From Bacteroidales bacterium (GTDB lineage: Bacteria; Bacteroidota; Bacteroidia; Bacteroidales; UBA932), in the NCBI GenBank assembly GCA_017428945.1, contig JAFRPW010000008.1, forward strand, positions 1-64,000: a stretch of 64,000 nucleotides of DNA, given 5' to 3'. This document shows positions 18,558 through 36,333 of this stretch, piece by piece. A program made the position numbers and the translations under genes. The first letter of the stretch is position 1; each line of letters begins with the position of its first letter. Below the pieces are notes generated by a model. It saw only the letters and a list, made by a program, of their open reading frames with translations, did no database searches and was not told the DNA's origin.

Positions 18558-18750
18558 AGTGTTTCTTGTCTTATTATAGGTTAAACTGTAAACAGCATAC
18601 ATGGTTGCCGCGCCACATGTGTGGTGCGTTGCTGTCTGCAGTCGGCGATACGGACATATCCGGCGCCCCAGCCAGAAAAAAGAAACACTGGTACTCCAGT
18701 GGAAGACGGCAGACCTCCGTCTTTGGCGCCCGATAGGGGCGATAACACAA
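18558..18750 (-). ncRNA. structured leader with terminator-like hairpin (possible attenuator or small RNA)
   Basis: A TATATTTG box (minus strand, 18758-18765) precedes, in order, four stems: CGCCC/GGGCG; GACGG/CCGTC (18717-18721 with 18705-18709); CACTGG-AGTA-CCAGTG (18701-18686), directly followed by TTTCTTTTTT (18685-18675), a convincing intrinsic terminator; and GGCG-C-CGGA-TATG-TCCG-TAT-CGCC. A fifth near-palindrome around CACCACACATGTGG lies just before the gene. Transcripts either stop after about 75-80 nt or read on into the 155-residue gene. Confidence 0.5.
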
Positions 18751-18849
18751 TCCTTGGCAAATATAAATCAAATAAACCAAATTTCCACATCATTTCGCTT
18801 ATAAAAACTCCTCCACGTTACTGTGGGAGAAGTTTTTCTATCCGCGTCC

Positions 18850-18873
18850 AGAAGGGCATGTGCCCTTCTTTTT
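18850..18873 (+). terminator. orphan intrinsic terminator
   Basis: Perfect 9-bp stem AGAAGGGCA-TG-TGCCCTTCT (18850-18869) followed by TTTT. No plus-strand gene precedes it; it lies 36 bp before a small frame on the same strand and would act as a leader terminator. An imperfect stem (around 18800-18834) precedes it. Confidence 0.65.
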
Positions 18874-18908
18874 CACTTCAATAACAAAACATTAACATCC
18901 AATCAATT

Positions 18909-19127
18909 ATGAAAGAATCCAAAGACCCGGCTCCACCAGCTGAGGTTGGGGTTGGGAAAAGGAAAAGTCCCAACAAACAACACATCAAGAAACTAAAAGC
19001 AAGGATGACTGGCAACACCGTTTACAGTATCGGCTTTCGTTCAGGGCATAAGGATGAAGAGGAGAAGATAGAAGGGGAGCCGAGGCCACCACCATGGGCT
19101 GGCGTCAGTGTATTATTCTTCAATTAA
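18909..19127 (+). CDS. possible small basic protein
   Basis: 72 residues (MKESKDPAPPAEVGVGKRKS...). It is rich in Lys/Pro, with no known domain. Its position 30 bp before the HTH gene in the same direction is the main support. The A/T-rich upstream spacer resembles that of the next gene. A short and weak call. Confidence 0.35.
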   Translation: MKESKDPAPPAEVGVGKRKSPNKQHIKKLKARMTGNTVYSIGFRSGHKDEEEKIEGEPRPPPWAGVSVLFFN

Positions 19128-19157
19128 CAAATTAACAAACCTCAAACTATATTAGCA

Positions 19158-19796
19158 ATGAAAAAGACAATCACAGAAACCCCAGAAGAACGCAAGGAAC
19201 GCTACCGCCGCTACCGCCAAAACAAACAATCGACCACTGAGAAGCAACGAGATGCCTTCCGGCAGGCAAAAAAGAATGGCACGATTGGAAAGCGTAACAT
19301 GGCTTTTCTATCGGATATACTAAAGGAACTCGGCCTTTCCCAAAAGGCGTTTGCAGAGGGCATTGGTTATACCCAGCAGGGTGTTCAGTACCATTTCATG
19401 GCCGATGATATGCGGCTGTCCTCCGTGCAGGAAGGCCTTCAGTACTTCGGCTATAGGATTACCGCGCGACTTGAGACAGGTGATGCCGGTCAACGTATCC
19501 CTATCACTGTTCAGGCGCCCGCTTACCGTGTGGAGGGCATCAGGACCCGGCCCGGTGAAACTAAACTGCCAGACTATCTGACCAGGTCTATCGAGCAGGG
19601 CGGGCGAGTGGCGTTTGTGGGCGAGGCTATCCTCCATTCTGGTAGAACCCTCGGATCCATTTGCGCCGAGGCGGGCATTGACCTAACATCCTTCCGCTTC
19701 TTCATCATCCAGGACGATTTCCGCGTGAGTTATCTCTACCGGATTGCGTCCGTCCTCCACGCCACCGTTGTGTGGACCGTGATGCCGATGGAGTAG
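19158..19796 (+). CDS. HTH-domain protein of unknown role
   Basis: 212 residues. A very basic N-terminus (about 1-45, rich in Arg/Lys/Gln) leads to an XRE-like helix-turn-helix (about 50-95: ILKELGLSQKAFAEGIGYTQ, then QGVQYHFMADD). A second segment near the C-terminus (HSGRTLGSICAEAGIDLTSF) has a similar pattern and may be a second HTH. It is probably a DNA-binding regulator of this accessory region; targets are unknown. It is followed by an intergenic region with a candidate small RNA. Confidence 0.65.
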   Translation: MKKTITETPEERKERYRRYRQNKQSTTEKQRDAFRQAKKNGTIGKRNMAFLSDILKELGLSQKAFAEGIGYTQQGVQYHFMADDMRLSSVQEGLQYFGYRITARLETGDAGQRIPITVQAPAYRVEGIRTRPGETKLPDYLTRSIEQGGRVAFVGEAILHSGRTLGSICAEAGIDLTSFRFFIIQDDFRVSYLYRIASVLHATVVWTVMPME

Positions 19797-19895
19797 GTTA
19801 TATTCATATTTCCTCCTGGGGCTGAAAGAGTGGTTTCGGGAGGAATAATTGCCGCTACATGGGAAAAAGATTTGTTTGAAAAAACTGCGAAATAA

Positions 19896-19927
19896 TTTGG
19901 AAAACTAAAACAATATTGCCATATTTG
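19896..19927 (+). promoter_or_regulatory. Bacteroidota promoter of candidate small RNA 1
   Basis: TTTG at 19896-19899, 20 nt, then CATATTTG at 19920-19927 (one base off TAnnTTTG). Confidence 0.6.
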
Positions 19928-19933
19928 CAGCAA

Positions 19934-20055
19934 TACCTACTACTTGTAGGGAAGTATAATTACTTTATCCATAATATCTACTGATATGTAGAGACGTAGT
20001 TCCCCAGTGGAACAAGGATTTAGTCTACAGCCAGTCCTTATGGGGCTGGCTTTTT
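19934..20055 (+). ncRNA. candidate small RNA 1 (about 120 nt)
   Basis: It begins about 7 nt after a good -7 box and ends at an intrinsic terminator. Stems: CCTAC-TACTT-GTAGG (19936-19950); outer TGTAGA/TCTACA (19987-19992 with 20024-20029), enclosing GTTCC-CCAGT-GGAAC (19999-20013); then the terminator AGCCAGTCC/GGGCTGGCT (20029-20037 with 20043-20051) and TTTTT. No plausible coding frame. It could instead be an attenuated leader of the HNH gene that starts 80 nt further on. Confidence 0.6.
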
Positions 20056-20135
20056 GTGTTTTTGTGTGCATGAAGAGTAGAGCCGAGACTACTGTTTTGA
20101 GGCGGGGTGGCCTGTTTGATATTATATAGCGAGTT

Positions 20136-20888: not shown

Positions 20889-20914
20889 TATTGGTAAATA
20901 GATTATTATCTTTG
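20884..20914 (+). promoter_or_regulatory. Bacteroidota promoter of candidate small RNA 2
   Basis: TTTG (20884-20887), exactly 19 nt, TATCTTTG (20907-20914). The -33 box overlaps the end of the HNH gene. Confidence 0.7.
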
Positions 20915-20920
20915 CCTTGT

Positions 20921-21012
20921 ATTTCGATGTATTAGGCCTATCGAATAGGCGATAGGCCCCTTACATTAACGTTTTAAATCCTTGGAACGCGGCCGATGTT
21001 TTTCGTCGGCCG
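20921..21012 (+). ncRNA. candidate small RNA 2
   Basis: Outer stem ATGTA/TACAT (20927-20931 with 20962-20966), internal loop TTA on one side and CCT on the other, and inner stem GGCCTATCG-AATAGG-CGATAGGCC (20935-20958). A second hairpin follows: CGGCCGA/TCGGCCG (20990-20996 with 21006-21012). There is no T-run, so the 3' end is uncertain and the transcript may run on to the terminator at 21134-21162. It shares the TTA-GGCC...GGCC-CCT core with small RNA 3. No coding potential. Confidence 0.6.
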
Positions 21013-21041
21013 TTGCCCTAACTGGAAAAAGGCCGGTCTCA

Positions 21042-21072: not shown

Positions 21073-21078
21073 CATGGC

Positions 21079-21162
21079 GAAAGGATGATTAGGCCTCCGA
21101 TGGAGGCCCCTTCGTCCTTAGAATAAACTCGACGCCGGCCCGCTTGACAGGGCCGGCTTTTT
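21079..21162 (+). ncRNA. candidate small RNA 3 (about 84 nt), antisense to lipoprotein 3' end
   Basis: Outer stem AAGGATGA/TCGTCCTT (21081-21088 with 21112-21119, one G-T pair), internal loop TTA/CCT, inner stem GGCCTCC-GAT-GGAGGCC (21092-21108), a 14-nt linker, then the terminator GCCGGCCC/GGGCCGGC (21134-21141 with 21150-21157) and TTTTT. Promoter, compact fold and terminator together make this the best-supported RNA in the window. Its last 45 nt are antisense to the end of the minus-strand lipoprotein gene. Confidence 0.7.
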
Positions 21163-22230
21163 ACTTGAACCGCTTGATCTCACTGTAGTTTCTTCTTCAG
21201 GCGATGGGACTATAGCAATCGCCAGATTATCTATTAGTATGCCTTCAAGTTCCTCATATGGAATTACAGCCTCGTATTGTCCATCGGCACCAGAACTAAG
21301 ATTATACGGGTAGAAAAAGAAGACCAGGCCTTCGTGGATAAGTGCACAGCCGTTGGCGCGTTGGAGGATACCGGTGTACTCTTCAGGCTTGTAGGGGTAT
21401 TGGTCTAAAATGAACGAATCCTTGTCGTTGATCAGGCGGGGCATCATCAGAGCAGCGAGAGTGTCCAGTTTGTCGGGCAGGATGAAGTCTGAGAGGCTAA
21501 GGAGTTTACCGCTGGTGGCATCGACCGTCCACCAGGATTCCCGGGCATTGTTGCCGCAGCTCATCCAGTCATACCAATCAATCCGATAAAAGGTGCACAA
21601 GTTGCCGCTATTCCAACAATCGACTAAGAGTAGACCGGCTTGCTCATTGAAGCTATCGTGGTCTCCTTCGCCAGTGCAATGCCAGCCGTCGTAAACGTGC
21701 CGTAGCTGGCCGATGTAATAGTCACAAATCTCTTTGTCGGTTTTCAGATGCTTGACGGGGATGTCTAGCGGCTTATCATTGTAGGTGAGCAAGCTATTCC
21801 CGATAGGGCACCCTTGGGCGAATGTATTGACCGTATCCGCAACCCAGTCCAACAGGGTCTGGACAGGCGGGCATCGGAGCGCCAAAACTACATATTCCGC
21901 AAAGCATGTGTCTTTAGGGCACATAGCGTATGCGGAGCGGTGAACAAGGCCTTCAATTGGCGGAAAGAGTAGCGTATCGTCCTGGAACGAACGGTCCCAA
22001 GATCCAATTTGACCGAAGGACAAGTACTTTCCTTCAGTTGCGATGAGGCCTTGCTCCGGATACACCAATTCCGGTTTGACTGCAACAGTTTTCTTCTTTT
22101 CTGAATCGCTTAATATGGTCATGGTTTCTTTCGAGAGTTCATTCAACGAAAGGTTAGCTGACTTTTGTTTCTTTGGATCGCATGAAAAGACGCTGACTAG
22201 CGCCAATGCGCATAGAAGAAGTTTCCTCAT
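21118..22230 (-). CDS. lipoprotein, DUF3298/RsiV-like
   Basis: 370 residues from the ATG at 22230 (MRKLLLCALALVSVFSC, an SPII signal); the longer frame overlaps the helicase and lacks a signal at its start. The C-terminal half (SGKLLSLSDFILPD, then FFYPYNLSSGADGQYEAVIP and YEELEGIL) matches the DUF3298 fold found in RsiV and in many Bacteroidota lipoproteins. Its ATG is 1 nt past the helicase stop, so the two are tightly linked even though one is a membrane-anchored exported protein. The last codons (KKPALSSGPASS) overlap the small RNA 3 terminator on the other strand, so the C-terminus may be a late addition. Confidence 0.78.
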   Translation of the reverse strand: MRKLLLCALALVSVFSCDPKKQKSANLSLNELSKETMTILSDSEKKKTVAVKPELVYPEQGLIATEGKYLSFGQIGSWDRSFQDDTLLFPPIEGLVHRSAYAMCPKDTCFAEYVVLALRCPPVQTLLDWVADTVNTFAQGCPIGNSLLTYNDKPLDIPVKHLKTDKEICDYYIGQLRHVYDGWHCTGEGDHDSFNEQAGLLLVDCWNSGNLCTFYRIDWYDWMSCGNNARESWWTVDATSGKLLSLSDFILPDKLDTLAALMMPRLINDKDSFILDQYPYKPEEYTGILQRANGCALIHEGLVFFFYPYNLSSGADGQYEAVIPYEELEGILIDNLAIAIVPSPEEETTVRSSGSSKKPALSSGPASSLF

Positions 22231-22231: not shown

Positions 22232-24868
22232 TCAATAGGATTGGGTTCTAAAGAAGTCATCGAATCTGCCGTTGCCCATATTGAGAACGAATAGGTTCTG
22301 CTTTGCACGGGTAATAGCAGTGTAAATCAATTCCGGCCTGCCCATTACAGCGCTTTCTCCGAAATCGTCAAGGTCATCATCGGGTTGAATGATAAGAATG
22401 ACATTGTCGGCATCCCATCCCTTATAGCTATGGATAGACGAGACCTTTAGTTGCTCCGTATCCATAGTGAAATGAAGTTTCTTATTATCCCGGACATCCT
22501 TGATGGTATCGACAAAGTGCTCGCTTTTGGTATTGCCATCGTTCTCGGCCAGAATCTTGTCGTACACCTCCTGCGTCTCAAATGTTGTCATACATGAACA
22601 GCCCTGGGATAGTCGGATTTGCTGTTCAAGCGCCCTTAACAGAGGGTATGTCTGGGAGACAATGACCGTCCTGCCTTTGTTAAGGTTGTTGTTGACAATC
22701 AATTTCTGACAAGCATCCGTCATCTCCTTTGCTGTTGCGTTTGCCAGGAAGGTTTCATAGAAAATATCTTTTTCTGATGCAAAACCGAATTCCAATTGTG
22801 TCTGAATATCATCGGCCACCTGATCCGGGAAGAAGTATCGCTGGAAGGACATAGCGAGAGACGCGATTCGTGGATTATCAAAACGCTGTCCTTGATTCAG
22901 CTTCTCAGTCCATCTACCTGGAATGGGCGTTTTTATTTCGTGCTGCTCATCCAACTCTCGTCTGTAGATGTTTTGCTTTGCGTCTCCAAACAAGATAAAT
23001 TCGCCATTCTCGGCCAAGAAGTATTTCTCCAGTATTTTCAGCCATGAATACTGATAATCCTGGACCTCATCAATCAGGATGGCAGAATACTTCGGTAAAC
23101 TATCCTTTTCAAACTCGAAGAAATTCTCATTTTCAAAGCACGTAAGGCTCATCTTTATATGATGATTTCGCGCCTGGGATACAAAGAACCTATGGTAGTT
23201 TGAGATGGTGAATTTGTTCCAAAGGAAGTCGGCCGGAATTCTGCCTATACGGTAGCGGATATAGTTAACCAGCGTGACATTGTAGGTCAATATCAGTATG
23301 TTTCCGCCTGTGCGAAGTTGGCAGTTGACCGCACGCGAAGCCAGCACTTGGGTCTTTCCTGAACCGGCAACACCCTTGATTTTCTGCCGACGGCCATCAA
23401 CGCTTTCTGCCAGCGGAGCTTGCTCCGGACGAAGCTTCAATGACGGGTCTCCGTCCCGGAATGTATGCCAACCGGTCTTCAGTTGACTGATGAATTCGTT
23501 ATAGGCTTCATCCGTGAAACTGCTGCGCGAACGTCTCAGATCCAAAACATCCAGGATGTCTTTATTGAAATCTTCGGCACCAAGAATCAGGACCTTGCTC
23601 TTCTCATTGTCGGTATTGAATACGGAGCCCAGTTGAACCCTTGTAGCGTCCGGGAACCATACTGCAGGACGAACGGCAAACCAACCATTCTTTTCCTTGA
23701 TGGTATTCCGGAGCAATGTGGAGGATTTTTCTGTAAGGATGTTCTCACAGTATCCTAAGACTGTTGACAGAGGTGAAGCCATCGGAACATCATCGCATAC
23801 AAAGCCTCGTTCTCCATCATAGAGACAGTTTCCCAGGTCTCCCTCGAAGACATTCATCACGACAATACCCTTACACCTGCGAACGATAACCAGATCAGGA
23901 GTATCCCCGCCCATTTCCGGCTTCAGATATACCCGGTCATCGGCCGACATATTCCGGCTTATATGGTTGTACACCCGGACGAGTTTTTCAGTAAGAAGGC
24001 CATTTTTGATAAGCCCAGCGGTGTCATAATCATCGTAAGCGCCAGCCGCTTCATATTTACCCTCCCTGAACGATGTGTCAATATGGCTGAGGCCCGTCTG
24101 AATGTAAAAACAGCGGGTCTTACAGGTAATAGGATAGTTGGTGTCAGAAGTATGGGCTATGCACCGGTCCTCAACATTGGAGAATTCAACGCGGTCCGTG
24201 AAATAGCTACAGAAGTCATCAATACGGCTTTTGTTCCCATTGCAAGGCCCCATGCACAGCACATATTGTGTCCCTTTCCCATTCTCAATCACCTCGGCCG
24301 TTTTCCTTAAGCTGATGTCCACCAAGTCAAGGATATTTGAGAAAAGGTGAACTGTGGTGGTCTCGTTCAGACTAAGTCCAAAGGCCCCGTTGTCCGTTCC
24401 ATTAGAAGGCAGTTTCTGGTTGAGACATACAATCTCTACGGAATGGCCGTTGAGTGCCTGCTCAATATTCCTTTTTGCTCGATTGAGGGCGGCTTTGGAT
24501 GGCTCAATCAACGTTACTCTTCTCACGTAGGAAAGCAGGCCGCGATGCTCAAGCGATTCCAGAAAGCAAAGTGAAGCAATAGCTTGACCGCACCCCCAGT
24601 CAACAATATGAATCCGCATCCCGAGATCCTGGTAAGGAAAGTTTTGGGCTGCAATGTTGCATTTGACCTTGTGCATTTCCCCGTACCAGCTGAGGTATGC
24701 AGCAAGCTGATCCTCCGTCTGAAGGATGTTTTTCCCGTGATTCAGGGAATCCTTCAGTTCGTAGCGCTGGGGCCAAGTTATCTGCCGGCGGCTATCGGAT
24801 ATGATGTTGTCAACTGTAAACATCTCGCTAATAGATGGTCTCTCCGAAAGGTTTGGATTTGTGTTCAC
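22232..24868 (-). CDS. methyltransferase-like / NERD-like / SF1 helicase fusion
   Basis: 878 residues (or 863 from the ATG at 24823, which avoids a 41-nt overlap with the upstream gene). Residues about 85-215 form a SAM-dependent methyltransferase-like Rossmann fold: HIVDWGCGQA (motif I, 86-96) and VTLIEPSKAA (motif II). Residues about 312-400 resemble a NERD nuclease module (GGDTPDLVIV, GIVVMNVFEGDL), but the usual E-x-K is not clear, so it may be inactive. Residues 470-878 are a UvrD/Rep-type SF1 helicase: KGVAGSGKTQVL (Walker A, 498-509), AILIDEVQDYQ (Walker B), LFGDAKQNIY (motif III), VSSIHSYKGWDADNVI (motif V) and IYTAITRAKQNL (motif VI). Probably DNA processing in anti-phage defence; it sits at the end of the type I RM operon. 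Confidence 0.85.
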   Translation of the reverse strand: MNTNPNLSERPSISEMFTVDNIISDSRRQITWPQRYELKDSLNHGKNILQTEDQLAAYLSWYGEMHKVKCNIAAQNFPYQDLGMRIHIVDWGCGQAIASLCFLESLEHRGLLSYVRRVTLIEPSKAALNRAKRNIEQALNGHSVEIVCLNQKLPSNGTDNGAFGLSLNETTTVHLFSNILDLVDISLRKTAEVIENGKGTQYVLCMGPCNGNKSRIDDFCSYFTDRVEFSNVEDRCIAHTSDTNYPITCKTRCFYIQTGLSHIDTSFREGKYEAAGAYDDYDTAGLIKNGLLTEKLVRVYNHISRNMSADDRVYLKPEMGGDTPDLVIVRRCKGIVVMNVFEGDLGNCLYDGERGFVCDDVPMASPLSTVLGYCENILTEKSSTLLRNTIKEKNGWFAVRPAVWFPDATRVQLGSVFNTDNEKSKVLILGAEDFNKDILDVLDLRRSRSSFTDEAYNEFISQLKTGWHTFRDGDPSLKLRPEQAPLAESVDGRRQKIKGVAGSGKTQVLASRAVNCQLRTGGNILILTYNVTLVNYIRYRIGRIPADFLWNKFTISNYHRFFVSQARNHHIKMSLTCFENENFFEFEKDSLPKYSAILIDEVQDYQYSWLKILEKYFLAENGEFILFGDAKQNIYRRELDEQHEIKTPIPGRWTEKLNQGQRFDNPRIASLAMSFQRYFFPDQVADDIQTQLEFGFASEKDIFYETFLANATAKEMTDACQKLIVNNNLNKGRTVIVSQTYPLLRALEQQIRLSQGCSCMTTFETQEVYDKILAENDGNTKSEHFVDTIKDVRDNKKLHFTMDTEQLKVSSIHSYKGWDADNVILIIQPDDDLDDFGESAVMGRPELIYTAITRAKQNLFVLNMGNGRFDDFFRTQSY

Positions 24869-25850
24869 GAAGGTGCCTTAACGCAATCTCCTTTGAACTG
24901 TTGGCATAGCAGTACTCGCAAAGGTGGGCGCAGGTGTTGTATTCGCCAATATCTTTGCTGACGATGCAGCCGCAGAACTGGCGCTGGCCTTTATCCTTAT
25001 TGTTCCGGTGCTTGATGATGGTCTTCTCCGGATTGAAGAGGTCCCCGCCGGTGATTTCAACACCAAGGAATTCCATCAGGCGGGTATCATCCGAAAAGAA
25101 GCGAATCATCAGGTCGTCATCGACACATTTGTTGTGGTCGATATCATACTGTTTAATATCAATCTTCTCTCCGCAGGTGGCCAGCGTGTAGCCCCAATCT
25201 TGGTTCAGCTGCTGGATAACAGTTGCAAACTCAATCATATCCTCTTCCTCAAATTCATGGTAGTGGATATTGTTGTTGACGAGGTTGGCGCGAACCTTCC
25301 TATAGGCAGCGATATCAGCGAAGCTGAAGACCATCTTCTCCGTGTACCCCTTAAGTTGGTCGCCGATGTTCTTTGCTTTCTGCAGAAGATCCTGAACACT
25401 GATCTCGTCCGTCAAAATGAGCGGATCAAAGCGCCAAATAACCTTCCCAACACCAAGTCTGTCGACCAGGCGTTTGAAGATGTCAATCCTTTTCTCAACA
25501 GATGGAACGCCCTTCTCTAGTTTCTCGGCAACATAATCGTTGAGGGTGTACTGGATATAACAATGGATACCTTTCGCATCCAGATAATCCAGAAGGCCAC
25601 CTTCCTTCAGGAGTGCCTCTGGGTACTTTGACCAGAATACAATTAGCCTGGTATCCCTGTAAGAAACATAGGACTGAACGCCGTTGAAAGGATTAGTCCA
25701 TGCCGAATAGCCGACCTTTAGCCGATGCAGAAACCAATCAGCATAGAAGCCCGGAATATCCGTGCTCCTGCTGGCAGAAACGATGACGGGGAACTGGGCT
25801 GGGACCATTTCTCCATTCTCCTTGATGATTGTTTCTTTTATTTTAGCCAT
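24828..25850 (-). CDS. DUF1848 family protein
   Basis: 340 residues from the ATG at 25850. Family hallmarks: VIVSASRSTDIPGFYADWFL, TNPFNGVQSYVSY, LIVFWSKYPEALL, CYIQYTLNDY, VIWRFDPLIL and a C-terminal cysteine cluster (CGCIVSKDIG, CAHLCEYCYAN). The cysteines suggest a metal or iron-sulphur site; the barrel-like body resembles radical-SAM-type folds, but no reaction has been established that I know of. It lies between hsdR (18 bp upstream) and the fusion helicase (overlapping or 5 bp away), so it is part of the same transcript. Confidence 0.85.
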   Translation of the reverse strand: MAKIKETIIKENGEMVPAQFPVIVSASRSTDIPGFYADWFLHRLKVGYSAWTNPFNGVQSYVSYRDTRLIVFWSKYPEALLKEGGLLDYLDAKGIHCYIQYTLNDYVAEKLEKGVPSVEKRIDIFKRLVDRLGVGKVIWRFDPLILTDEISVQDLLQKAKNIGDQLKGYTEKMVFSFADIAAYRKVRANLVNNNIHYHEFEEEDMIEFATVIQQLNQDWGYTLATCGEKIDIKQYDIDHNKCVDDDLMIRFFSDDTRLMEFLGVEITGGDLFNPEKTIIKHRNNKDKGQRQFCGCIVSKDIGEYNTCAHLCEYCYANSSKEIALRHLREHKSKPFGETIY

Positions 25851-28800: not shown

Positions 28801-29171
28801 AGCTTGAGCAGGGTGCCACCAACCAGGTTGTAGAGGTTGAGGAGGCAGAAATAGGCCTCACCGCTCTTGACTCCTCCGGCGTGCGCTGCAATATTGCCCA
28901 CTCTGCGTATGTAGTGTGCCGCAGCCATCAAACGGTCATCGTCGATGAACGTGACAAACGGCTCGCCTGTCATCAGTTCAAACAGGGGCTTTCGCTCGCC
29001 AATCTCGGCATTTTTGAGGGTATAGATGGCCTTGACCAACCATTCGAGTCCCCGGCGGCAATGCAGGGCACAGGCGTCGTGGTCTGATTCCATTGAGGCC
29101 TCTGCACCCTGACAGAAGGTGTAGAGGTCATGAAGTGGCTCTATGTCACGCAGGTAATCGAAGTTGGTCAT
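25869..29171 (-). CDS. hsdR: type I restriction enzyme, HsdR subunit with N-terminal DUF4145
   Basis: 1100 residues from the ATG at 29171 (MTNFDYLRDIEPLHDLYTFC), 4 bp past hsdS; the longer frame overlaps hsdS. Order: DUF4145-like helical domain (about 15-120); HSDR_N nuclease with the D...E-x-K set (ADYVLYGSDGKPLAVIEAKR, about 250); two RecA-like helicase domains with MATGSGKTRVS (Walker A, about 350), LIIIDEAHRS (motif II) and QMVGRGTRKS (motif VI); and an EcoEI_R_C-type C-terminus. It translocates and cuts unmethylated DNA in complex with HsdM and HsdS. Confidence 0.94.
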   Translation of the reverse strand: MTNFDYLRDIEPLHDLYTFCQGAEASMESDHDACALHCRRGLEWLVKAIYTLKNAEIGERKPLFELMTGEPFVTFIDDDRLMAAAHYIRRVGNIAAHAGGVKSGEAYFCLLNLYNLVGGTLLKLRFLSSLAPFNRTLIPKTGVRITPRETVPVPVHQFVESVPAEAVASKTPAPVLSDYSEFETRRLFIDLMLRDAGWELVGKDNVVLPNKAGTEIEVHGMPAQDIGYADYVLYGSDGKPLAVIEAKRTSKDPVIGKHQAELYAQCLKEQYGILPVIYYTNGFQTFVIDGLGYPPRQILGFHSQEDLLVIHRSRGRAAITDTKVKDHITDREYQKRAIHSICDHFNKMHRRGLLVMATGSGKTRVSISLCDVLIRNKWVKNVLFLADRNALVEQAYVNFEKLLPDYSKTRLDMPKPDLSARFIFSTYQTMIGYIDSDKKNFSVGRFDLIIIDEAHRSVFGKYTAILDYFDALMVGLTATPREDVDRSTYELFGLDGEPNFAYELAEAVDDKYLVNFVVMNRTSKHLREGIKYKELTAEQKGQFEDIWKYEAARSEEGAAPTPRDIRSSEIIDYIYNEKTIDLVLEDLITTGLTVNGGDTIGKTIIFAHKHEHAVKIVERFQKQYPEYGSDFCVLIDNQVTKAQDLINSFEVRGKMPQIVVSVDMMDTGIDVPDVLNLVFFKQVKSKIKFWQMVGRGTRKSPDVHGEGLDKQYFTIYDWCGNFDFFDVTPEGEPLLPMVSVTERLFDLRVDMALALQHAQYQQDPFARSLHDDIKKTLRTQVLALSDQNITVRRHWEVVDKFRKEESWVCLSDIDALDLKDQIAPIIIRSVTDNSALRFDILILNIQLAQILPDHQAGKSMVRVTEIAKSLQSKATIQQVKDKIAIVNEVANPDFWKSATLDKLETVRIEMRDLVQFIKGDKKRNFTINVPDIIEYKDAPKHTMPTLTYKERVIDFISKNRHHPVLEKIRSLQQLTQQDILALENICWKDLGTKEEYQAYVRRGGLICGDSVAAFIRSIIHVDRSKALELYSKYLTASPLNPEQEEYLKSVLDYVSLNGDIQPATLYHEEPFSEWDLQSFFNTDTPAFVGYIRQLHNVIGA

Positions 29172-29175: not shown

Positions 29176-30306
29176 TCATACGTTAAAGTATTTATCCATT
29201 CTACTGGAGAATAGCATGATAGCCGCTTTTTTCGATTCTTCAATGTAATTCCTTTGTCTTTCTATTGCTTGAAGCCTTTGGGCAAAAGCATCTTGCCTTT
29301 CGCGGCATACCAAAGGTATCGTAACACTCAAAAGCTTAGGTTTTGAGATGTTCTTCATTGTACCACTTGTTCCAGACGCCAATGAACGGATTTGTTGTTT
29401 AGCGTCAAATTGAATCAAGGCTTTCCAGATGAATATGGGATTAGCTCCTTCCGTGAGAGTAGCCCTCCATAAACGGTCTGGAAGATATACATTGGGTTTA
29501 ACGTCCCATACATAGGCGACAGCACCAACAAGTTCGGCAGTATTCATCCGGCTAATCAGCAAGTCTCCTTTATGTACTCGATCTTCTTCTCGGGGAATGT
29601 AATCAAGCGGAAGATTTTTCACATCATCGCCTCTGAAGTAATCATACGTAACGGCACCTGTTTTCAATACTTTATACTGATTCTCTTCATCGCCAGCAAG
29701 ACTCTTTCCTCCGGATAGTTCTGTCACATAGGTCGATAATGTTGTCTTCTCTTTTACATCACCGAACATCTCGTGAAAGATGGACTGAGCAAGGTCATCG
29801 AGGGTCTTGAGCTGGGCTTTCTTCTTCTCAACTATGCCGGAGAGGAGGTCCAGTTCGGCCACGATGCGCTGCTGGTCGGCATGGGACGGAAGGTCTATTT
29901 CTATTAACAGGATACTCTTCAAATCAAGTGTTGGGACAGCACCCCTTCGCATGTATTGAGCAAAGTCAATTTGCTGAAAAAGATAGAAAAGATAGTCAGT
30001 GCCAACAAGATCGGCGTTAGGTTTAACGCCTCCGGTATTCAAATCGACGATGCTGTCCTGCCCAAGAATACGTTTCTTATTTGTGGCAATAGCGGCGCCA
30101 TTCTTCGGGAAAACGATTGCTCCTTTAGGAAAGATTTTTCGGCTTTCCTTGACATAGGCATCTGTGTCAGTCATCACTCGCTTGTTAGCTTCGCGATTCA
30201 TTTCTGCAACCTTGAAATACGGATACTTGCCGCTTGGAAACAATTCTGACGCGGCGGGTGTAAACCCGCTGAAAGGTGTGCATATGTCACCAATTTGAAC
30301 TTTCAT
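29176..30306 (-). CDS. hsdS: type I restriction-modification specificity subunit HsdS
   Basis: 376 residues with two target-recognition domains (about 1-150 and 185-345), each followed by a helical spacer (about 150-180, AELDLLSGIVEKKKAQLKTL; and about 345-370). Conserved ends such as LKSILLIEIDLPSHADQQRI and ISKPKLLSVTIPLV mark the TRD borders. It sets the bipartite DNA target for both methylation and cutting. It is 3 nt past hsdM. The N-terminal TRD differs strongly from the C-terminal one, as expected for asymmetric sites. Confidence 0.93.
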   Translation of the reverse strand: MKVQIGDICTPFSGFTPAASELFPSGKYPYFKVAEMNREANKRVMTDTDAYVKESRKIFPKGAIVFPKNGAAIATNKKRILGQDSIVDLNTGGVKPNADLVGTDYLFYLFQQIDFAQYMRRGAVPTLDLKSILLIEIDLPSHADQQRIVAELDLLSGIVEKKKAQLKTLDDLAQSIFHEMFGDVKEKTTLSTYVTELSGGKSLAGDEENQYKVLKTGAVTYDYFRGDDVKNLPLDYIPREEDRVHKGDLLISRMNTAELVGAVAYVWDVKPNVYLPDRLWRATLTEGANPIFIWKALIQFDAKQQIRSLASGTSGTMKNISKPKLLSVTIPLVCRERQDAFAQRLQAIERQRNYIEESKKAAIMLFSSRMDKYFNV

Positions 30307-30309: not shown

Positions 30310-31806
30310 TTACAGATACTTTTCACGGAACTCTTTGAGTGCCTGGGTAATCTCTCTCTGGTAATCGTCCAGCTGGTCCAGCAGCTTGTCGCTGGGCTCA
30401 TATTTCACCTTTTCAACCTTGACTTCGCGGTACTTGTTGAGGGAAAGGACGTAGCCGTTTTTGCGAATTTCATCCACCGGCACCAGGAAACTCTGGTCCT
30501 GACGGGTACGGCTCTCTTCTGCAGCAAGATTGGCGTAGCGGGCAATGACATCCGGAATGTCGTTCTCCTCAACGGGTGTGCGCTTCTGATCCAGGGAGAG
30601 GCCGTCGGCCTTCATATCGTAGAACCAAACCTTGTCCGTGCCGCCGGCATTGGTCTTGGAGAAGATGAGAATGGCCGTGGAGACACCGGAATAAGGGAGG
30701 AACACGCCGGAGGGCATTGAGATGACGGCTTTGAGATGCTGGTTATCCACCAGCTCCTTGCGAATGGCCTGATGAGCCGTGGAGGCACCGAAGAGAACGC
30801 CATCGGGAACAATGCTGGCGCACTTGCCACCAATGCGGAGCATACGGACAAACAGTGCCAGGAAGAGGAGTTCGGTTTTCTTGGTATTGGTTACCGAAAG
30901 CAGAGATTTTGCGATGTTGCCGCCATCGATGCTGCCGGCGAAGGGCGGATTGGCCAGAATGAGGTCGTAGCAATCGGCGTCCTCGTTCTCCGGAGAGAGA
31001 CTGTCCTGCCATTTGACATCGGGGGCATCTACGCCGTGAAGCATCAGATTCATCGCGCCGATACGGAGCATCGTGGTGTCGGTATCAAAGCCGTGGAACA
31101 TCTGCGTCTTGTAGTGCTGCATATTGGCTTTCTTCATCAGCTCGGCATGGTGATGGTCCTGGACGTATTTAGCTGCCTCAACGATAAAGCCCGCAGAGCC
31201 CATAGCCGGGTCGCAGATTTCCCAATCCACCTGAGGCTGCATCATCTCCACCATCATACGGATGATGTGACGCGGGGTGCGGAACTGGCCATTGTTGCCG
31301 GATGCGGCCATCTTTCCGAGGATGTATTCATAGACATCGCCCATGGTGTCGCGGTCGGTCATATCCAGATTCTGGATGCCAGCCACCACTTTATCCAACG
31401 TGCGCGGGTTCTGGATCATAAAGACGGCCGACTGCATATAGCGGCTGTAGGCGGACTGCTTGCCTTCCCCGAGGTTCTTGATGAAGACGAACACATCGTT
31501 GCGGACGATGGAGAACATCTTGGCGGGATCTTCAAGGCGGAAGTTCTTCCAACGAAGCTCCTCATAAGGAACATCACGGTCGGTTTCCGGGTTATGCCAG
31601 AGTTTGCTTTTCTTGAAAACAAGGTCATCGGGTTCTATTCCGAGCTGGCGGGCATTGCGCTCACGAACGTCCTGAGCATCGTCCAGCATCTTCATAAAGA
31701 AGAGGTAGGTCATCTGCTCCAGGATGGTCATCGAGTTGGTGATGCCACCGGTCCAGAAGGTGTCCCAGATTTGGTCGATTCTATTTTTGATTTCGCCTGT
31801 AATCAT
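30310..31806 (-). CDS. hsdM: type I DNA methyltransferase subunit HsdM
   Basis: 498 residues. N-terminal HsdM helical domain (about 5-140, FMKMLDDAQDVRERNARQLG), then the N6-adenine methyltransferase core: DPAMGSAGFIVEAA (SAM motif I, about 200) and LILANPPFAGSID (NPPF catalytic motif, about 285). GGKCASIVPDGVLFG follows. A -7 box (TACCTTTG on the minus strand, 31830-31837) sits 24 bp upstream, so hsdMSR has its own promoter inside the locus, in keeping with methylation being kept on. Confidence 0.95.
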   Translation of the reverse strand: MITGEIKNRIDQIWDTFWTGGITNSMTILEQMTYLFFMKMLDDAQDVRERNARQLGIEPDDLVFKKSKLWHNPETDRDVPYEELRWKNFRLEDPAKMFSIVRNDVFVFIKNLGEGKQSAYSRYMQSAVFMIQNPRTLDKVVAGIQNLDMTDRDTMGDVYEYILGKMAASGNNGQFRTPRHIIRMMVEMMQPQVDWEICDPAMGSAGFIVEAAKYVQDHHHAELMKKANMQHYKTQMFHGFDTDTTMLRIGAMNLMLHGVDAPDVKWQDSLSPENEDADCYDLILANPPFAGSIDGGNIAKSLLSVTNTKKTELLFLALFVRMLRIGGKCASIVPDGVLFGASTAHQAIRKELVDNQHLKAVISMPSGVFLPYSGVSTAILIFSKTNAGGTDKVWFYDMKADGLSLDQKRTPVEENDIPDVIARYANLAAEESRTRQDQSFLVPVDEIRKNGYVLSLNKYREVKVEKVKYEPSDKLLDQLDDYQREITQALKEFREKYL

Positions 31807-31867: not shown

Positions 31868-32806
31868 TTATTTAAATATCAAAAAGTTGCTTACTTTATC
31901 TCCAATACATTTGGAAGGATTATTAACAATGTTCTGATATTCAGCCAATAAACGTGCAGTAAACTCGTGGTTCTTCCGGATAGCGTGCGTCTTCACTTCT
32001 GTGGACACATCGTGCTTTATACTGTTCTGCTTGATGTTGAAACTGCTTCCGTGTTTAACGCGATAGTAGTTCGTAATCAAAGCTCTGTCGTGCGTGGCAT
32101 ACGTGGTCAATATGGTAACGGTAGATTGGTTGCTGCCGGATGCCTTCTTGACGATGGCTTTGATTTTGGCCTGCTCTGTAGCAAGATCTATCTGATTATC
32201 GACTTCCCGCTCTTTGACAATAATGATGACATTGACGGGAATATTCTGAGGTATCGCACTCAAACCCCGGATTATCTCATTATCGTTGGCGTCGTAGACA
32301 TATTTATCCTTGAAGTAGTGGTTGTCGCAAATGATAATATCTGTAAGCGGAAGATGAGGAAGGTATTTACCCCAGTCTATTATCTGGTAAGACAGCTCTT
32401 CACCGTTATCCTCCAGGGAGAATATCTCCTTCAACTTTGAAAGCTCATCTCCCACCTTGGACACAATTACACAGCACTTCGTCTCAGCTGCAGCAGTCTT
32501 GCCGGCATCGTCCAGGAAGAACATGGAAGACCGTCCAGCGGCATCCAGCGAATTGTAGAAATTAGACTTCATCGGGCGCTCGGGAACTACTGTCTTAGGT
32601 GGGCAGAAGTCCTGGGAGCCGCCGACACCGGAACCGAATTGAGAAAACCAGAAAGTCAGGTATTCATTCCCTTTGATTTCTTCTTTCGAGAAGTTGTATT
32701 GAACGTCCAGGTTCTTTCTGACGAGGGCAGCATACTCGGCAAAGGCCGCTTTGTCTTCAGAGCGGACCAACGAGATGAGATTTTCCTTGTCGATGTACAG
32801 AACCAT
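31868..32806 (-). CDS. unknown protein paired with TRD-ATPase (HDR motif)
   Basis: 312 residues, cytoplasmic. The N-terminal half is mixed and unrecognised. The C-terminal half reads LPLTDIIICDNHYFKDKYVY, then PVNVIIIVKER, then YATHDRALITNYYRVKHGSS. This strand-loop-HDR-strand order resembles phospholipase-D-like folds, in which an HxD/HxK-type motif is catalytic, but here the spacing is not canonical, so nuclease activity is only a hypothesis. It is 2 nt past the ATPase gene, which strongly implies a two-protein module. It precedes hsdM. Confidence 0.7.
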   Translation of the reverse strand: MVLYIDKENLISLVRSEDKAAFAEYAALVRKNLDVQYNFSKEEIKGNEYLTFWFSQFGSGVGGSQDFCPPKTVVPERPMKSNFYNSLDAAGRSSMFFLDDAGKTAAAETKCCVIVSKVGDELSKLKEIFSLEDNGEELSYQIIDWGKYLPHLPLTDIIICDNHYFKDKYVYDANDNEIIRGLSAIPQNIPVNVIIIVKEREVDNQIDLATEQAKIKAIVKKASGSNQSTVTILTTYATHDRALITNYYRVKHGSSFNIKQNSIKHDVSTEVKTHAIRKNHEFTARLLAEYQNIVNNPSKCIGDKVSNFLIFK

Positions 32807-32808
32807 AG

Positions 32809-34926
32809 CTACAGTATGTCAAAAACCAGATTACTTGCTTCGTCAAAGAAGCCGTGACCAAATTCGTTTTCGAACTTGCCGTCAGGACGGTAAAGCATGT
32901 CATAAGGAAGTTTGCCATCACTTGGGAAATAAATCACCTTAAAAGGCGATGCCTTCAGGAGTTCTTCCTGTGAAGCGAAATGTTCCTTGGCAACAAGCAC
33001 CTGGGACTTTCTAATCATGTATTCCGAGTGAGTCTCGATGATGAAACGGAAGCCGTAATCCTTGTTGAGGCTGTAGAAGAAGTCCGCCAACTCACTTTGG
33101 AGCATCGGGTGAAGGTTCTGCTCAGGCTCTTCAATAATAAGAAGGGAAATGACCTTTTTACCGCCATAACCAATGCCGGCCTCGGCCATCTTGGTTGCAA
33201 TACGGAATAGAAGAATCATGAGCTGGATGGAGCCCATACCTTTGTCTGCAAGGTTCACCCATTGACCGTCGAGGTTCTGAATCTTGACCAGGTGGGCTTC
33301 GCCGCCGACGGAGGTGATTTCATAATCCTGGCCAATCTTGAATGTCTTCATCCACTTGATGATGAAGTCGTATGAGGGCGAGCCAAGGCCGACCTGCAGA
33401 TTGGCATATTCGTGGATAGTCTTGACGTGATAGTCGTTGGTGTCCTTAGCGCTGAACAGGATAGTCTGAGTAACGGCGTGGGCATAAATATACTCCACGC
33501 TTATCTCTGTCTGCTTATTCAGCTTGAAGTACTTGTCCCGGAAAACGGATTTCTTCTTAGTGAGGAATTCCTTAGCCTTATCGGAAAGACCGAAAACGCC
33601 AAGATCATCTTGCGATACCCTTTTAGAACTGAGGTTGTCGAGGGTTGCAGCGAGTCGAGTAAAGAAACTTTGTAAAAGGGCGTCGGCCACATATTCGTCG
33701 CGGATAGATAGGCCGGGCACTATGCCCATATCAATTTCGATATCCTCCGTAAGGCCCTTGTAATATTTCTGTAGATATTTTACCGGATATCCATCTGGCA
33801 CTTTTTCAATGTCATAGCCTGGATATGGATTAGCATGAAAGATAACGCTGATAGTTCGGTCCGATTTCAATGAAAAAGTCAGGTCGATGTTAAAAGGCAA
33901 CAACGTTATCTTTATCCTCGAGACGCGGCCAAACACATCAGATTCGCTGTCGGACTTTTCCACGTCTATCTCATACATGCGGTCTCCGACAGTAATTGTG
34001 AAAGTGATTGGAGTACCTTCAGGAGCCTTATTATAGCGAGCCCGATCAAATGTTCCGATATGGGTATAATAACTCTTGTTGAAATAGAAATTCAGATTCA
34101 TCCACGCATCTCCTTCAAGCGAGGTAATACGGGTTTTCAGGAAATCCAAGATAGAGAGCATAGCCTTCACAACCGTGGATTTTCCAGCATTGTTCTCACC
34201 AACAAAAATGCTTATCTGACCCAGATTAAGAGGTTCAAGTTCCTTGAACTTCCTAAAGTTTTTAAAACCAATTACGTTTTGTCCAGTGATCGCGACTTGC
34301 TTATCTTCAATAATAGTCGGCGAATCTGGAGTACAACGATTTGTTAAAGGTGGGTTCTCCAGAAGAATTCTATCTATCGTATCTTCATCTGGCACAACAA
34401 TCTGAATCGCAAGGAAGTCCTCCTCGGTCAGTTGCAAATCGGGATTCTTGTCAACGGCTTCCCGAGCCTGTAATGCGACATAATCAGACAATAGTTCTCT
34501 AAGCACATACTTGATGGGGGCTTCAGCACCTCGTTTAGTATGAAAGAGAAATAGATCGTTTTCAACCCATACCGGAGGAAATAAACTTGCTTCCTCTTCA
34601 ATTAAACGTATATCTAAGGAAATGTTTTTAGTTTTGCCTATGAGGCCTATTTTAAACTTTCCATCTTTAAAAGAGGCTAGGCTATCAGTTCCATCATACG
34701 CCAACAGCTTCTCTTTGTATTTCTTGCTATGAGGACGCGAAGGAATATCTTTATCGTTGATAGGCTTTGCTTTATAGTAATCACAAAGTATGGTATGGCG
34801 ATATACTGGCACCTCTGCGGCGCCATCCCCACGCAAATAGTCCCATTCACCAGGATAACTCTTGTCGATTTGAATTAACTCCGAAAGTTTAACTAACTTC
34901 TCGTTCTCGTTAAGTTTAATCTTCAT
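32809..34926 (-). CDS. AAA ATPase (DUF3696-like) with HsdS-like N-terminus
   Basis: 705 residues from the ATG at 34926; the longer frame starts before the likely transcription start (GATCTTTG box at 34966-34973). Residues about 10-190 look like a half HsdS (KLVKLSELIQI, PVWVENDLFLFHTKRG, LTEEDFLAIQIVVPDEDTID), i.e. one target-recognition domain. Residues about 220-705 are an ABC/SMC-type ATPase of the OLD/DUF3696 kind: SIFVGENNAGKSTVVKAM (Walker A, about 241-258), LLIIEEPEQNLHP (Walker B/D-loop region), FIIETHSEYMIRK (H-loop). Probable DNA-sensing ATPase; the effector may be the adjacent 312-residue protein. Confidence 0.85.
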   Translation of the reverse strand: MKIKLNENEKLVKLSELIQIDKSYPGEWDYLRGDGAAEVPVYRHTILCDYYKAKPINDKDIPSRPHSKKYKEKLLAYDGTDSLASFKDGKFKIGLIGKTKNISLDIRLIEEEASLFPPVWVENDLFLFHTKRGAEAPIKYVLRELLSDYVALQAREAVDKNPDLQLTEEDFLAIQIVVPDEDTIDRILLENPPLTNRCTPDSPTIIEDKQVAITGQNVIGFKNFRKFKELEPLNLGQISIFVGENNAGKSTVVKAMLSILDFLKTRITSLEGDAWMNLNFYFNKSYYTHIGTFDRARYNKAPEGTPITFTITVGDRMYEIDVEKSDSESDVFGRVSRIKITLLPFNIDLTFSLKSDRTISVIFHANPYPGYDIEKVPDGYPVKYLQKYYKGLTEDIEIDMGIVPGLSIRDEYVADALLQSFFTRLAATLDNLSSKRVSQDDLGVFGLSDKAKEFLTKKKSVFRDKYFKLNKQTEISVEYIYAHAVTQTILFSAKDTNDYHVKTIHEYANLQVGLGSPSYDFIIKWMKTFKIGQDYEITSVGGEAHLVKIQNLDGQWVNLADKGMGSIQLMILLFRIATKMAEAGIGYGGKKVISLLIIEEPEQNLHPMLQSELADFFYSLNKDYGFRFIIETHSEYMIRKSQVLVAKEHFASQEELLKASPFKVIYFPSDGKLPYDMLYRPDGKFENEFGHGFFDEASNLVFDIL

Positions 34927-34965
34927 AGGATGAGGCTTTAATCTGTTTTTTCCTGCTTGACGATG

Positions 34966-34973
34966 CAAAGATC
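34966..34973 (-). promoter_or_regulatory. near-consensus -7 box of ATPase gene
   Basis: Plus strand CAAAGATC, i.e. GATCTTTG toward the ATPase gene, followed by C; one base off TAnnTTTG. It supports 34926 as the start. Confidence 0.45.
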
Positions 34974-34994
34974 TTATTCCTCTATGCAATCTAT

Positions 34995-36002
34995 CTACAC
35001 ACTAAAATACTTTTCGTAAGATTGGCGAATTATATCCTGAACCTGCTTTCTAAAGAGATCAGGCGTCAGCACCTCCACGTCCTTCCCAAAGGAGAGGATG
35101 AGGGCCTCCAGTTCATGATTGGGGATAACTTCAATTTCAACAATGCACTTATCCATATCCACAATTCGCTGGGAGGGATGAAGAGACTTCGTCAAAACAT
35201 ACTGAAAGCGTTTCTCCTCAAATTGCAGCTGGATACGCACCTTGTCGCCATTATTTACACTAACCCCAACGACATCATCGAAAAAGTTTTCGAAATCAAT
35301 ATCATTTTGGATGTATTTTACGTGCACCTGCTCAATATTCACGATTCGATCCAACGCCAAATTGTAGATGCTCTTCGTTTCGTCATTCAAGCCGAAGAGA
35401 AACCACCTGTTATTGTACTGCTTGATGTAGTAGGGATGGATAATCCATTCAAAAGATTTCTCGTCGAAAGTGGAATAGTTTATCTTCAATACCTGCTCGT
35501 TGATAATGGCCTCAAATAAATCTTGAAACCAGTCCAATCCAGTGTAATTCTTATTCTCCTCATAACCAATCACACTTTTCGACGAGCCGTTCAGTGAGAG
35601 TTTGTCTTCTAATTTTACCACTAGTTCGGACATCCAGTCGAAATTGGGCATTCCCTTGAAGCGCTGGAGCATCAGGATGGTTTCTTTAAGCTGGGCTAAA
35701 TCGTCTTCTCCAAGACCACGCTTGAAGATGGAGAAATCGGGCTCGGAATAGCGGTAGTAGTAGCCGTTGCCATCGTCAATGGCCTCCACATCTACCCCAG
35801 CCTCGGTTGCGCGTGTGCGGATGTAATTGATGTCGCTGCGGAGTGTGCGGGTTTTTATGCCGGAATGGTCGCTGCCGTAGAGTTCACGCAAGGCTTCATT
35901 ACAACGCTCCATAAGGTCGTTGAAATAGAATTTTCGCCGGAAATTGCTGAAACAATCATCCAGTACTTTGTAGCGAATCTGTGCGTGTTTGTTACTAGCC
36001 AA
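34995..36002 (-). CDS. WYL-domain transcriptional regulator of the defence locus
   Basis: 335 residues. An N-terminal helix-turn-helix region (about 5-90, MERCNEALRELYG, TRTLRSDINYIRTRATEAGV) is followed by a WYL domain (about 165-240, INYSTFDEKSFEWIIHPYYI, NNRWFLFGL) and a WCX-like C-terminus (about 250-335). WYL regulators commonly head phage-defence clusters such as BREX and CBASS, and sense nucleic acid or nucleotide ligands. It is the first gene of the long minus-strand run; a TAAATTTG box lies 24 bp upstream (36026-36033). Confidence 0.9.
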   Translation of the reverse strand: MASNKHAQIRYKVLDDCFSNFRRKFYFNDLMERCNEALRELYGSDHSGIKTRTLRSDINYIRTRATEAGVDVEAIDDGNGYYYRYSEPDFSIFKRGLGEDDLAQLKETILMLQRFKGMPNFDWMSELVVKLEDKLSLNGSSKSVIGYEENKNYTGLDWFQDLFEAIINEQVLKINYSTFDEKSFEWIIHPYYIKQYNNRWFLFGLNDETKSIYNLALDRIVNIEQVHVKYIQNDIDFENFFDDVVGVSVNNGDKVRIQLQFEEKRFQYVLTKSLHPSQRIVDMDKCIVEIEVIPNHELEALILSFGKDVEVLTPDLFRKQVQDIIRQSYEKYFSV

Positions 36003-36025
36003 GGGGTTTTCGTGTTATAATCAAG

Positions 36026-36033
36026 CAAATTTA
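36026..36033 (-). promoter_or_regulatory. -7 box of WYL gene / defence operon
   Basis: Plus strand CAAATTTA, i.e. TAAATTTG toward the WYL gene, followed by C. A TTTG lies 22 nt further upstream. Confidence 0.6.
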
Positions 36034-36099
36034 GCTTTTTTTCTTGAAAGACCCCGCAAATTTGGTAGAATAGTGTGCAATTTAATTGCATAACCCCCT

Positions 36100-36306
36100 T
36101 CACACCATCAACCTCACCAACCTCCCATCCCTGCAAAACATCTCTGGATGCCGGAAGAATGCCGCCCACACCTGGCTGACGTTCACGGGCTGGCCGTCCT
36201 TCCGCACGCAAAGGCGGCGGCTGTTGATCTCAAACACCAGCCTGTCGGCAGTCATCCCGCAGCCCTCGGTGGAGAGGAGAAATACTATAGCTTCTTCTAT
36301 ACTCAC
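36100..36306 (-). CDS. small winged-helix protein, HARE-HTH-like
   Basis: 68 residues. The pattern EEAIVFLLSTEGCGMTADRL, then INSRRLCVRKDGQPVNVSQV, then FFRHPEMFCRDGRLVRL fits the HARE-HTH winged helix (also found joined to restriction endonucleases and in RNA polymerase delta). No partner domain is present. It lies 97 bp upstream of the WYL gene in the same direction. Its start is supported by the preceding hairpin, which should end transcription from the gene above. Family call is by pattern only. Confidence 0.5.
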   Translation of the reverse strand: MSIEEAIVFLLSTEGCGMTADRLVFEINSRRLCVRKDGQPVNVSQVWAAFFRHPEMFCRDGRLVRLMV

Positions 36307-36333
36307 AAAGCAGAGTTAGATTCTCTTTCTATA

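What the first reader, a model, noticed from the sequence alone, without database searches (positions are those of the whole stretch)
18600..36310. Composite defence locus: WYL regulator, TRD-ATPase pair, type I RM, DUF1848, fusion helicase, lipoprotein
Nine minus-strand genes (36002 to 21118) follow each other with gaps of at most about 70 bp (most under 20 bp, some overlapping). The type I RM and WYL parts are known defence building blocks. The TRD-bearing ATPase with its partner, the DUF1848 protein and the MTase/NERD-like/helicase fusion are not part of standard type I RM and I know of no named system with this set. Tight packing suggests that the extra genes extend or guard the RM system.
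Basis: partly seen in the sequence, partly recalled or inferred. Interest (0 to 1): 0.82.

Follow-up and report, generated by a model that had tools for sequence, protein, structure and literature searches.

The report
Restriction operon with two defence add-ons
A bacterial genome carries one tightly packed gene run that joins an ordinary type I restriction system to two separate, recurring and unnamed gene modules that look like extra phage-defence layers, and that turn up in other bacteria with different partners.

Summary
The nine-gene minus-strand run is real. It joins three parts. (1) A complete EcoAI-type hsdM-hsdS-hsdR. (2) A WYL regulator, a Rad50/PtuA-like ATPase and a partner that I identify as phospholipase-D/MIT_C-fold (model pLDDT 86; MITD1 and PLDs are the top structural matches). 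The pair recurs: in its clade 12 of 15 pairs have a DNA methyltransferase gene directly downstream; of the 13 pairs outside none was seen, one of them with too little sequence to judge. Restriction genes differ between related pairs while the link stays, which favours a functional tie. (3) DUF1848 plus a methyltransferase-like (MTL), degenerate-NERD, UvrD helicase. This is an independent module: 15 of 18 MTL loci carry DUF1848, with exchangeable extra parts, but only 2 of 18 lie near hsd-type genes; DUF1848 itself mostly occurs without MTL. Modules 2 and 3 meet in one other locus seen (L031), without RM. The 'TRD' in the ATPase could not be confirmed. No named system tested matches. Function is inferred, not shown.

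The parts
34995..36002 (-). WYL+WCX transcriptional regulator (g1)
   Evidence: Pfam WYL 2.9e-11, WCX 1.4e-9; WYL gene upstream of the ATPase in 11 of 14 assessable clade members (window, others)
32809..34926 (-). Rad50/SMC/PtuA/GajA-like ATPase (g2) with a ~215-aa N-terminal extension of unknown fold
31868..32806 (-). Partner (g3): PLD/MIT_C-fold C-terminal half with HxRx4N in place of HxKx4D, plus N-terminal part of untested fold
30310..31806 (-). HsdM, N6-adenine methyltransferase, motif IV NPPF intact (g4)
   Evidence: N6_Mtase 9.6e-67, HsdM_N 8.6e-14; NPPF
29176..30306 (-). HsdS, two target-recognition stretches (g5)
   Evidence: Methylase_S 6e-20, 2 stretches
25869..29171 (-). HsdR, EcoAI/EcoEI type (g6)
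   Evidence: ResIII 1.4e-40, EcoEI_R_C 4.7e-9, HSDR_N 9.7e-7; PADLOC REase_I 2.1e-143
24828..25850 (-). DUF1848 protein with invariant C-terminal CxxxCxYC, a radical-SAM-like cysteine motif (g7)
   Evidence: PF08902 3.4e-87; motif in 21 of 21 aligned sequences
22232..24823 (-). MTL (methyltransferase-like) domain + degenerate NERD + UvrD-type SF1 helicase (g8)
   Evidence: UvrD 3.9e-12; PADLOC NERD+UvrD 7.1e-32; MTL domain shared by 19 aligned ORFs; NERD ExK lost
21118..22230 (-). DUF3298-like lipoprotein (g9); co-directional, probably not part of either module
   Evidence: DUF3298 23.5 bits, cut-off 24.1; lipobox read by eye

Best explanation
This is a layered defence operon assembled from exchangeable modules. 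The hsdM-S-R genes form an ordinary type I restriction system. The WYL regulator controls expression of the run. The Rad50/PtuA-like ATPase and the PLD/MIT_C-fold partner form one complex that is tied to the neighbouring DNA methyltransferase or its DNA site. When that tie is disturbed, by unmodified phage DNA or by an anti-restriction factor, ATP hydrolysis releases or activates the partner, which acts as the effector. The most likely action is nucleic-acid cleavage by a dimer, with membrane or phosphate binding as the alternative. DUF1848-MTL-helicase is a second, separate defence module that has joined the same gene run. Shown here: gene order, RM motifs, fold of the ATPase head and of the partner's C-terminal half, recurrence, and different RM genes beside related pairs. 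Inferred: co-transcription, complex formation, trigger, effector chemistry, abortive outcome, anti-phage function.
For: A methyltransferase gene is directly downstream of the partner, on the same strand and 34-400 bp away, in 12 of 15 clade members, and was seen in none of the 13 pairs outside (L037 shows only 562 bp of downstream sequence). For all 12 a Pfam N6_Mtase match lies in that gene (coordinates mapped by hand). Different histories: window versus L030 partner 43%, ATPase 48%, HsdM 25%; window versus L036 HsdM 64%, HsdR 45%, partner 26%. In L036, L041 and L042 the downstream gene is an M-S fusion with degenerate motif IV, so recognition without methylation may be enough. Folds. Precedent: PrrC, a tRNase silenced by a linked type I RM enzyme (RloC paper PMC2610378, start of abstract seen in listing).
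Against: L031, L044 and L039 belong to the clade yet have no methyltransferase next to the pair in the sequence at hand (990 bp for L044). Outgroup pairs occur without one; L028, an outgroup, has an N6_Mtase-matching 1202-aa gene three genes downstream, so the clade rule is not clean. L031, L032 and L033 have no WYL gene. The canonical HxKx4D motif is HxRx4N in 17 of 17 members, as in the membrane-binding MITD1 (recalled), so the partner may not be an enzyme. ATPase and partner were paired by selection on partner homologues, so their adjacency in the tree set is not an independent test. No physical or phage data. Defence genes cluster anyway, so linkage alone does not prove cooperation.
Confidence: 0.45

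Rival explanations
1. Plain defence island: three independent systems (RM, ATPase-PLD pair, DUF1848-MTL-helicase) sit together for shared WYL regulation and joint transfer, with no mechanistic contact.
For: Each part is found without the others: 16 of 28 pairs have no methyltransferase gene directly downstream in the sequence at hand, 16 of 18 MTL loci have no hsd-type genes near, RM genes differ between related pairs.
Against: The methyltransferase gene is the immediate next gene in 12 of 15 clade members, in Bacteroidales and Flavobacteriales records and with two dissimilar RM sets; a random island would give varied neighbours.
Confidence: 0.35
2. The ATPase-partner pair is an accessory of the RM enzyme itself: it regulates restriction or DNA repair after restriction, and is not a killing effector.
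Against: GajA (17.5) and PtuA (up to 17.3) score nearly as high, PADLOC NsnB and AriA match, and pairs without adjacent RM exist.
Confidence: 0.15
3. The DUF1848-MTL-helicase part is a housekeeping repair or modification cassette that was caught by the operon and has no defence role.
For: DUF1848 mostly stands without MTL: 47 of 49 further DUF1848 loci, picked from those not already in the MTL set, have none in reach; neighbours there include an M20 peptidase and a TonB receptor.
Against: MTL proteins carry changing extra parts (UvrD, DpdF-like helicase, Sel1, LRR) and in one Pfam-tested locus lie beside an ART/ARG gene, a pattern typical of conflict systems.
Confidence: 0.2

Closest known systems
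PrrC / RloC anticodon nucleases linked to type I RM
   Same: ABC-type ATPase effector encoded with a type I RM operon; guard logic (PMC2610378, start of abstract in listing)
   Different: here the candidate effector is a separate PLD/MIT_C-fold protein; no anticodon nuclease domain was listed for g2 or g3
Septu (PtuAB), Gabija (GajA), PARIS (AriA), Menshen (NsnB)
   Same: same ATPase superfamily (NsnB 4.5e-32, AriA 7.4e-27; PtuA/GajA structures)
   Different: partner beside the ATPase has no HNH, UvrD, DUF4435 or Nsn match; linked to hsd genes
Type I RM, EcoAI/EcoEI type
   Same: hsdM, hsdS, hsdR all present
   Different: nothing seen; the RM part is ordinary
MADS (methylation-associated defence system)
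   Same: combines a methyltransferase, S subunit and AAA ATPase (from the NCBIfam names)
   Different: matches to MAD2, MAD3, MAD5 lie far below the curated cut-offs (98.4 of 720, 27.1 of 420, 18.5 of 400 bits)
MITD1 C-terminal domain (PF16565 MIT_C)
   Same: fold of the partner's C-terminal half; HDR motif of MITD1 recalled
   Different: eukaryotic protein with an MIT domain; the partner has another N-terminal part
PADLOC RTasDUF1848 and C3a187 NERD+UvrD
   Same: DUF1848 (8.4e-31) and NERD-UvrD (7.1e-32) are in the defence library
   Different: no reverse transcriptase among the nine genes; g8 adds the MTL domain and has a degenerate NERD

Membership tests
Type I restriction-modification (EcoAI type) | HsdM with N6 motif NPP[FY], HsdS with two TRDs, HsdR with nuclease, helicase and C-terminal domains | tested here: met
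   HSDR_N match is partial
Type I restriction-modification (EcoAI type) | ATP-dependent restriction of unmodified DNA | not testable with these tools
   needs bench work
Septu/Gabija-type ATPase systems | Rad50/SMC-like ABC ATPase head | tested here: met
Septu/Gabija-type ATPase systems | HNH (PtuB) or UvrD (GajB) partner directly beside the ATPase | tested here: not met
   partner has no such hit and a PLD/MIT_C fold; the GajB-like g8 (2.4e-12) lies five genes away from the partner
Menshen | NsnB-like ATPase | tested here: met
   PDLC03878 4.5e-32
Menshen | NsnA and NsnC beside it | tested here: not met
   no Nsn family in the complete PADLOC lists of g1, g3, g6, g7, g9; lists of g2, g4, g5, g8 were cut at 25 rows
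MADS | MAD1-8 set | tested here: not met
   only far sub-cut-off matches to MAD2, 3, 5
PLD superfamily | PLD fold | tested here: met
PLD superfamily, catalytic | HxKx4D motif (recalled) | tested here: not met
   HxRx4N in 17 of 17
MIT_C (PF16565) | profile match | tested here: inconclusive
   2 of 17 members, best 5.1e-4; the window protein itself none
HsdS-type target-recognition domain in the ATPase N-terminus | profile or fold match to TRD | tested here: inconclusive
Radical SAM | CxxxCxxC cysteine motif (recalled) in DUF1848 | tested here: met
   21 of 21 sequences
Radical SAM | radical SAM barrel fold and Fe-S cluster | not tested
   only weak NCBIfam rSAM matches, 0.0016 and 0.0054, far below cut-off
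PrrC/RloC guard effector | anticodon nuclease domain, silenced by RM | tested here: inconclusive
   no such domain listed for g2 or g3; silencing not testable here

The most novel reading that the evidence does not exclude
Two undescribed defence principles meet here. (b) A radical-SAM-like DUF1848 protein and a dedicated methyltransferase-like domain form a common sensor or modifier core to which effectors (helicase, ADP-ribosyltransferase pair, DpdF-like helicase) are swapped in.
Probability: 0.25. Interest if true: 0.8.

Novelty: new variant of a known kind. Interest (0 to 1): 0.58.

Why it matters
If the ATPase-partner pair watches the restriction enzyme, it would be a guard that works with more than one RM family: related effector pairs sit beside dissimilar RM genes. 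It would also suggest a function for a bacterial relative of the MITD1 domain. The DUF1848-MTL core with exchangeable effectors is a candidate defence class; the word DUF1848 occurs in no paper of the searched library.

Tried and rejected
TRD in the ATPase: not confirmed. The idea that the long N-terminus of the L031 ATPase is a degenerate M-S protein got no support (hhalign probability 0.5% or less). Reading the run as Menshen or MADS: rejected. Flank genes to see an empty site in five related genomes: one gave only distant multi-copy matches, the other no match outside the own genome. Viral contigs: no relative of the partner by six peptide patterns. Plasmids: one relative. PDB by sequence: no relative of the partner family. 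DUF1848 against PDB: only FKBP rows at E 0.11 or worse. PADLOC for the partner family: best PDC-S05 0.0028, 2 of 17 members, too weak. A paper on MADS, or on MIT_C in such pairs, was not recognised in the rows listed; the Menshen domain paper is not held.

Rows dropped before counts: L009 (same contig as L040), L014 and L043 (cut by contig ends), L045 (partner only a 90-aa piece, no ATPase recognised) and L029 (weak hit, no ATPase) were left out of the tree; L043 and L045 do have the methyltransferase next. L076, L077, L078 and the unfetched G073:C32 and G170:C22 matches were left out of the MTL count, because they match only the NERD-helicase part. The 49 further DUF1848 loci are part of the matches (71 of 344 genomes), mostly those above 250 bits plus five weak ones, without those already fetched as MTL loci; several are cut by contig ends.
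Full report
WHAT IS THERE. The window holds nine consecutive minus-strand genes from 36002 down to 21118. With starts chosen by inspection the gaps are 68, 2, 61, 3, 4, 18, 4 and 1 bp. In order: WYL+WCX regulator; AAA_15 ATPase; a 312-aa partner without a meaningful family hit; HsdM; HsdS; HsdR; DUF1848; a UvrD-type helicase with a weak N-terminal methyltransferase match; a DUF3298-like lipoprotein. The RM part looks complete and ordinary: HsdM has NPPF, HsdS two Methylase_S stretches, HsdR a partial HSDR_N match, helicase domains and the EcoEI C-terminal domain. One genome of the same order, G037, holds a contig of the same length (109,073 bases) as the contig of L040, which is titled a Bacteroides fragilis MAG, so the order is probably Bacteroidales.

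MODULE 1 RECURS WITH METHYLTRANSFERASES. Relatives of the partner are rare: 8 of 393 genomes of the order and 7 of 395 of the phylum with a profile, own genome counted in both; 17 loci in the species-level genome collection by two peptide patterns; one plasmid record. In the annotated plasmid of Prevotella sp. E2-28 the order is WYL, small ORF, ATPase, partner, methyltransferase, S subunit, helicase-type R. A tree of 28 ATPase-partner pairs puts the window in a 15-member clade (support 0.896; 1.0 with two further members). In that clade 12 of 15 have a DNA methyltransferase gene directly downstream on the same strand, each confirmed by a Pfam N6_Mtase match at the mapped place. The exceptions are L031, L039 and L044, the last with only 990 bp of downstream sequence. 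None was seen directly downstream in the 13 pairs outside; L037 (562 bp) and L013 (866 bp) end soon after, and L028 has an N6_Mtase-matching gene as third gene downstream. N6_Mtase matches number 1 to 16 per whole genome in this set, so an adjacent one is not expected by chance. A WYL gene lies upstream in 11 of 14 assessable clade members, not in L031, L032 and L033. An hsdR follows in 9 of 10 clade members that have the methyltransferase and enough sequence; L041 has none, and in L030 it is a 194-aa piece at the contig end.

RM GENES DIFFER, THE LINK STAYS. Window against L030: partner 43%, ATPase 48% over 238 residues, but HsdM 25%; the HsdR piece of L030 matches only over 47 residues (E 0.048), but it is incomplete. 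Window against L036: HsdM 64%, HsdR 45%, but partner 26%. So the pair and the RM genes have different histories and have been joined more than once. In L036, L041 and L042 the next gene is a fused M-S protein (N6_Mtase and Methylase_S by Pfam for L036; L041 and L042 by similarity to it, and by N6_Mtase). Its motif IV is degenerate in all three (DYPF, DLPL, DLPF), and a YhcG-type nuclease gene sits between WYL and ATPase. This suggests that recognition rather than methylation is what the pair needs. That step is inference.

MODULE 2 IS INDEPENDENT. The helicase protein carries a methyltransferase-like domain (MTL, about residues 20-285) that is conserved by itself. A search of 393 order genomes gave hits in 21. 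After removing NERD-only matches there are 18 loci with MTL, counting the window and L031. DUF1848 lies in the same locus in 15 of 18: 13 seen, with none to two genes between or fused, and two cut by contig ends (L089, L100, the latter just under the family cut-off). For L079 and L080 DUF1848 sits near the end of another contig of the same genome, and only L087's genome has none. DUF1848 is present in 71 of 344 genomes of the order overall. The reverse does not hold: 47 of 49 further DUF1848 loci have no MTL in reach. MTL proteins carry different parts: NERD-UvrD (window, L031, L074, L075), a DpdF-like helicase (L083), Sel1 repeats (L081, L084, L086), LRRs fused with DUF1848 (L082). One cassette reads DUF1848, SF1 helicase, 2CompART/2CompARG ADP-ribosyltransferase/glycohydrolase, MTL; this was tested by Pfam for L088, and L085 and L101 have the same layout by gene lengths. 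In the four MTL-NERD-UvrD proteins the NERD E-x-K is lost, while Walker motifs are kept; one of three NERD-UvrD proteins without MTL (L076) has lost it too. NERD nuclease activity is therefore unlikely here. DUF1848 has invariant cysteines, three as CxxxCxYC, in 21 of 21 sequences, like radical SAM enzymes (recalled). The word DUF1848 occurs in no paper of the library. Only the window and L083 have hsd-type genes near this module: by similarity, and by Pfam N6_Mtase in the 17 other genomes, where only G331 (L083) has a listed match within 10 kb of MTL on the same contig; several loci are cut by contig ends.

BOTH MODULES TOGETHER. Among the loci seen, only L031 repeats the combination, as DUF1848, MTL-helicase, a TerB-like ORF, ATPase, partner, without RM genes. 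The complete nine-gene set was found once, here.

INTERPRETATION. The best reading is a layered operon: RM, a guard-like ATPase-effector pair tied to the methyltransferase, and an added DUF1848-MTL module. The guard idea has a precedent in PrrC, which is silenced by a linked type I RM enzyme (PMC2610378, start of abstract in listing). A plain defence island remains a strong rival. No step of the mechanism has been shown experimentally.

LITERATURE SEEN. PMC12839542: outline and passages. PMC10952713: passages. PMC12715929: passages. PMC2610378: start of abstract only. In the rows listed by searches I recognised no paper that describes either module; long result lists were cut.

Noticed in passing
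L036:11056-13284, L041:11027-13255, L042:11045-13294: Fused M-S methyltransferases with degenerate motif IV directly after the ATPase-partner pair; possible sensor pseudo-methyltransferases.
   Followed up: partly
L088:203-5506 (similar layout in L085, L101): Four-gene cassette DUF1848, SF1 helicase, 2CompART/2CompARG, MTL protein; looks like an unnamed defence system.
   Followed up: partly
L038:6494-7723: DUF3825 + OST-HTH/LOTUS protein between WYL and ATPase.
   Followed up: no
L041:8424-16091: Two ATPase-partner pairs in one locus, separated by the M-S fusion.
   Followed up: no
L043:4857-9471: Two GmrSD_N (DUF262) genes behind partner, M and S genes, where hsdR would be expected.
   Followed up: no
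L028:1700-10821: Outgroup pair followed by three long genes, the third with a weak N6_Mtase match (2.3e-7); possibly another DNA-modification system beside the pair.
   Followed up: no
window 36334-36370: Perfect 15-bp inverted repeat with 7 nt between the arms, between the MORN-like gene and the WYL gene; terminator of the former or WYL operator.
   Followed up: no
window 20136-20888 (+): Plus-strand ORF that reads by eye like an HNH endonuclease (not tested), next to the run but on the other strand.
   Followed up: no
L170:3453-8390, L165:2658-5222, L175:2528-4099: DUF1848 near other conflict-type genes: NERD+AAA_11/12 giant protein, NB-ARC with effector-associated domain, Schlafen AlbA_2.
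   Followed up: no
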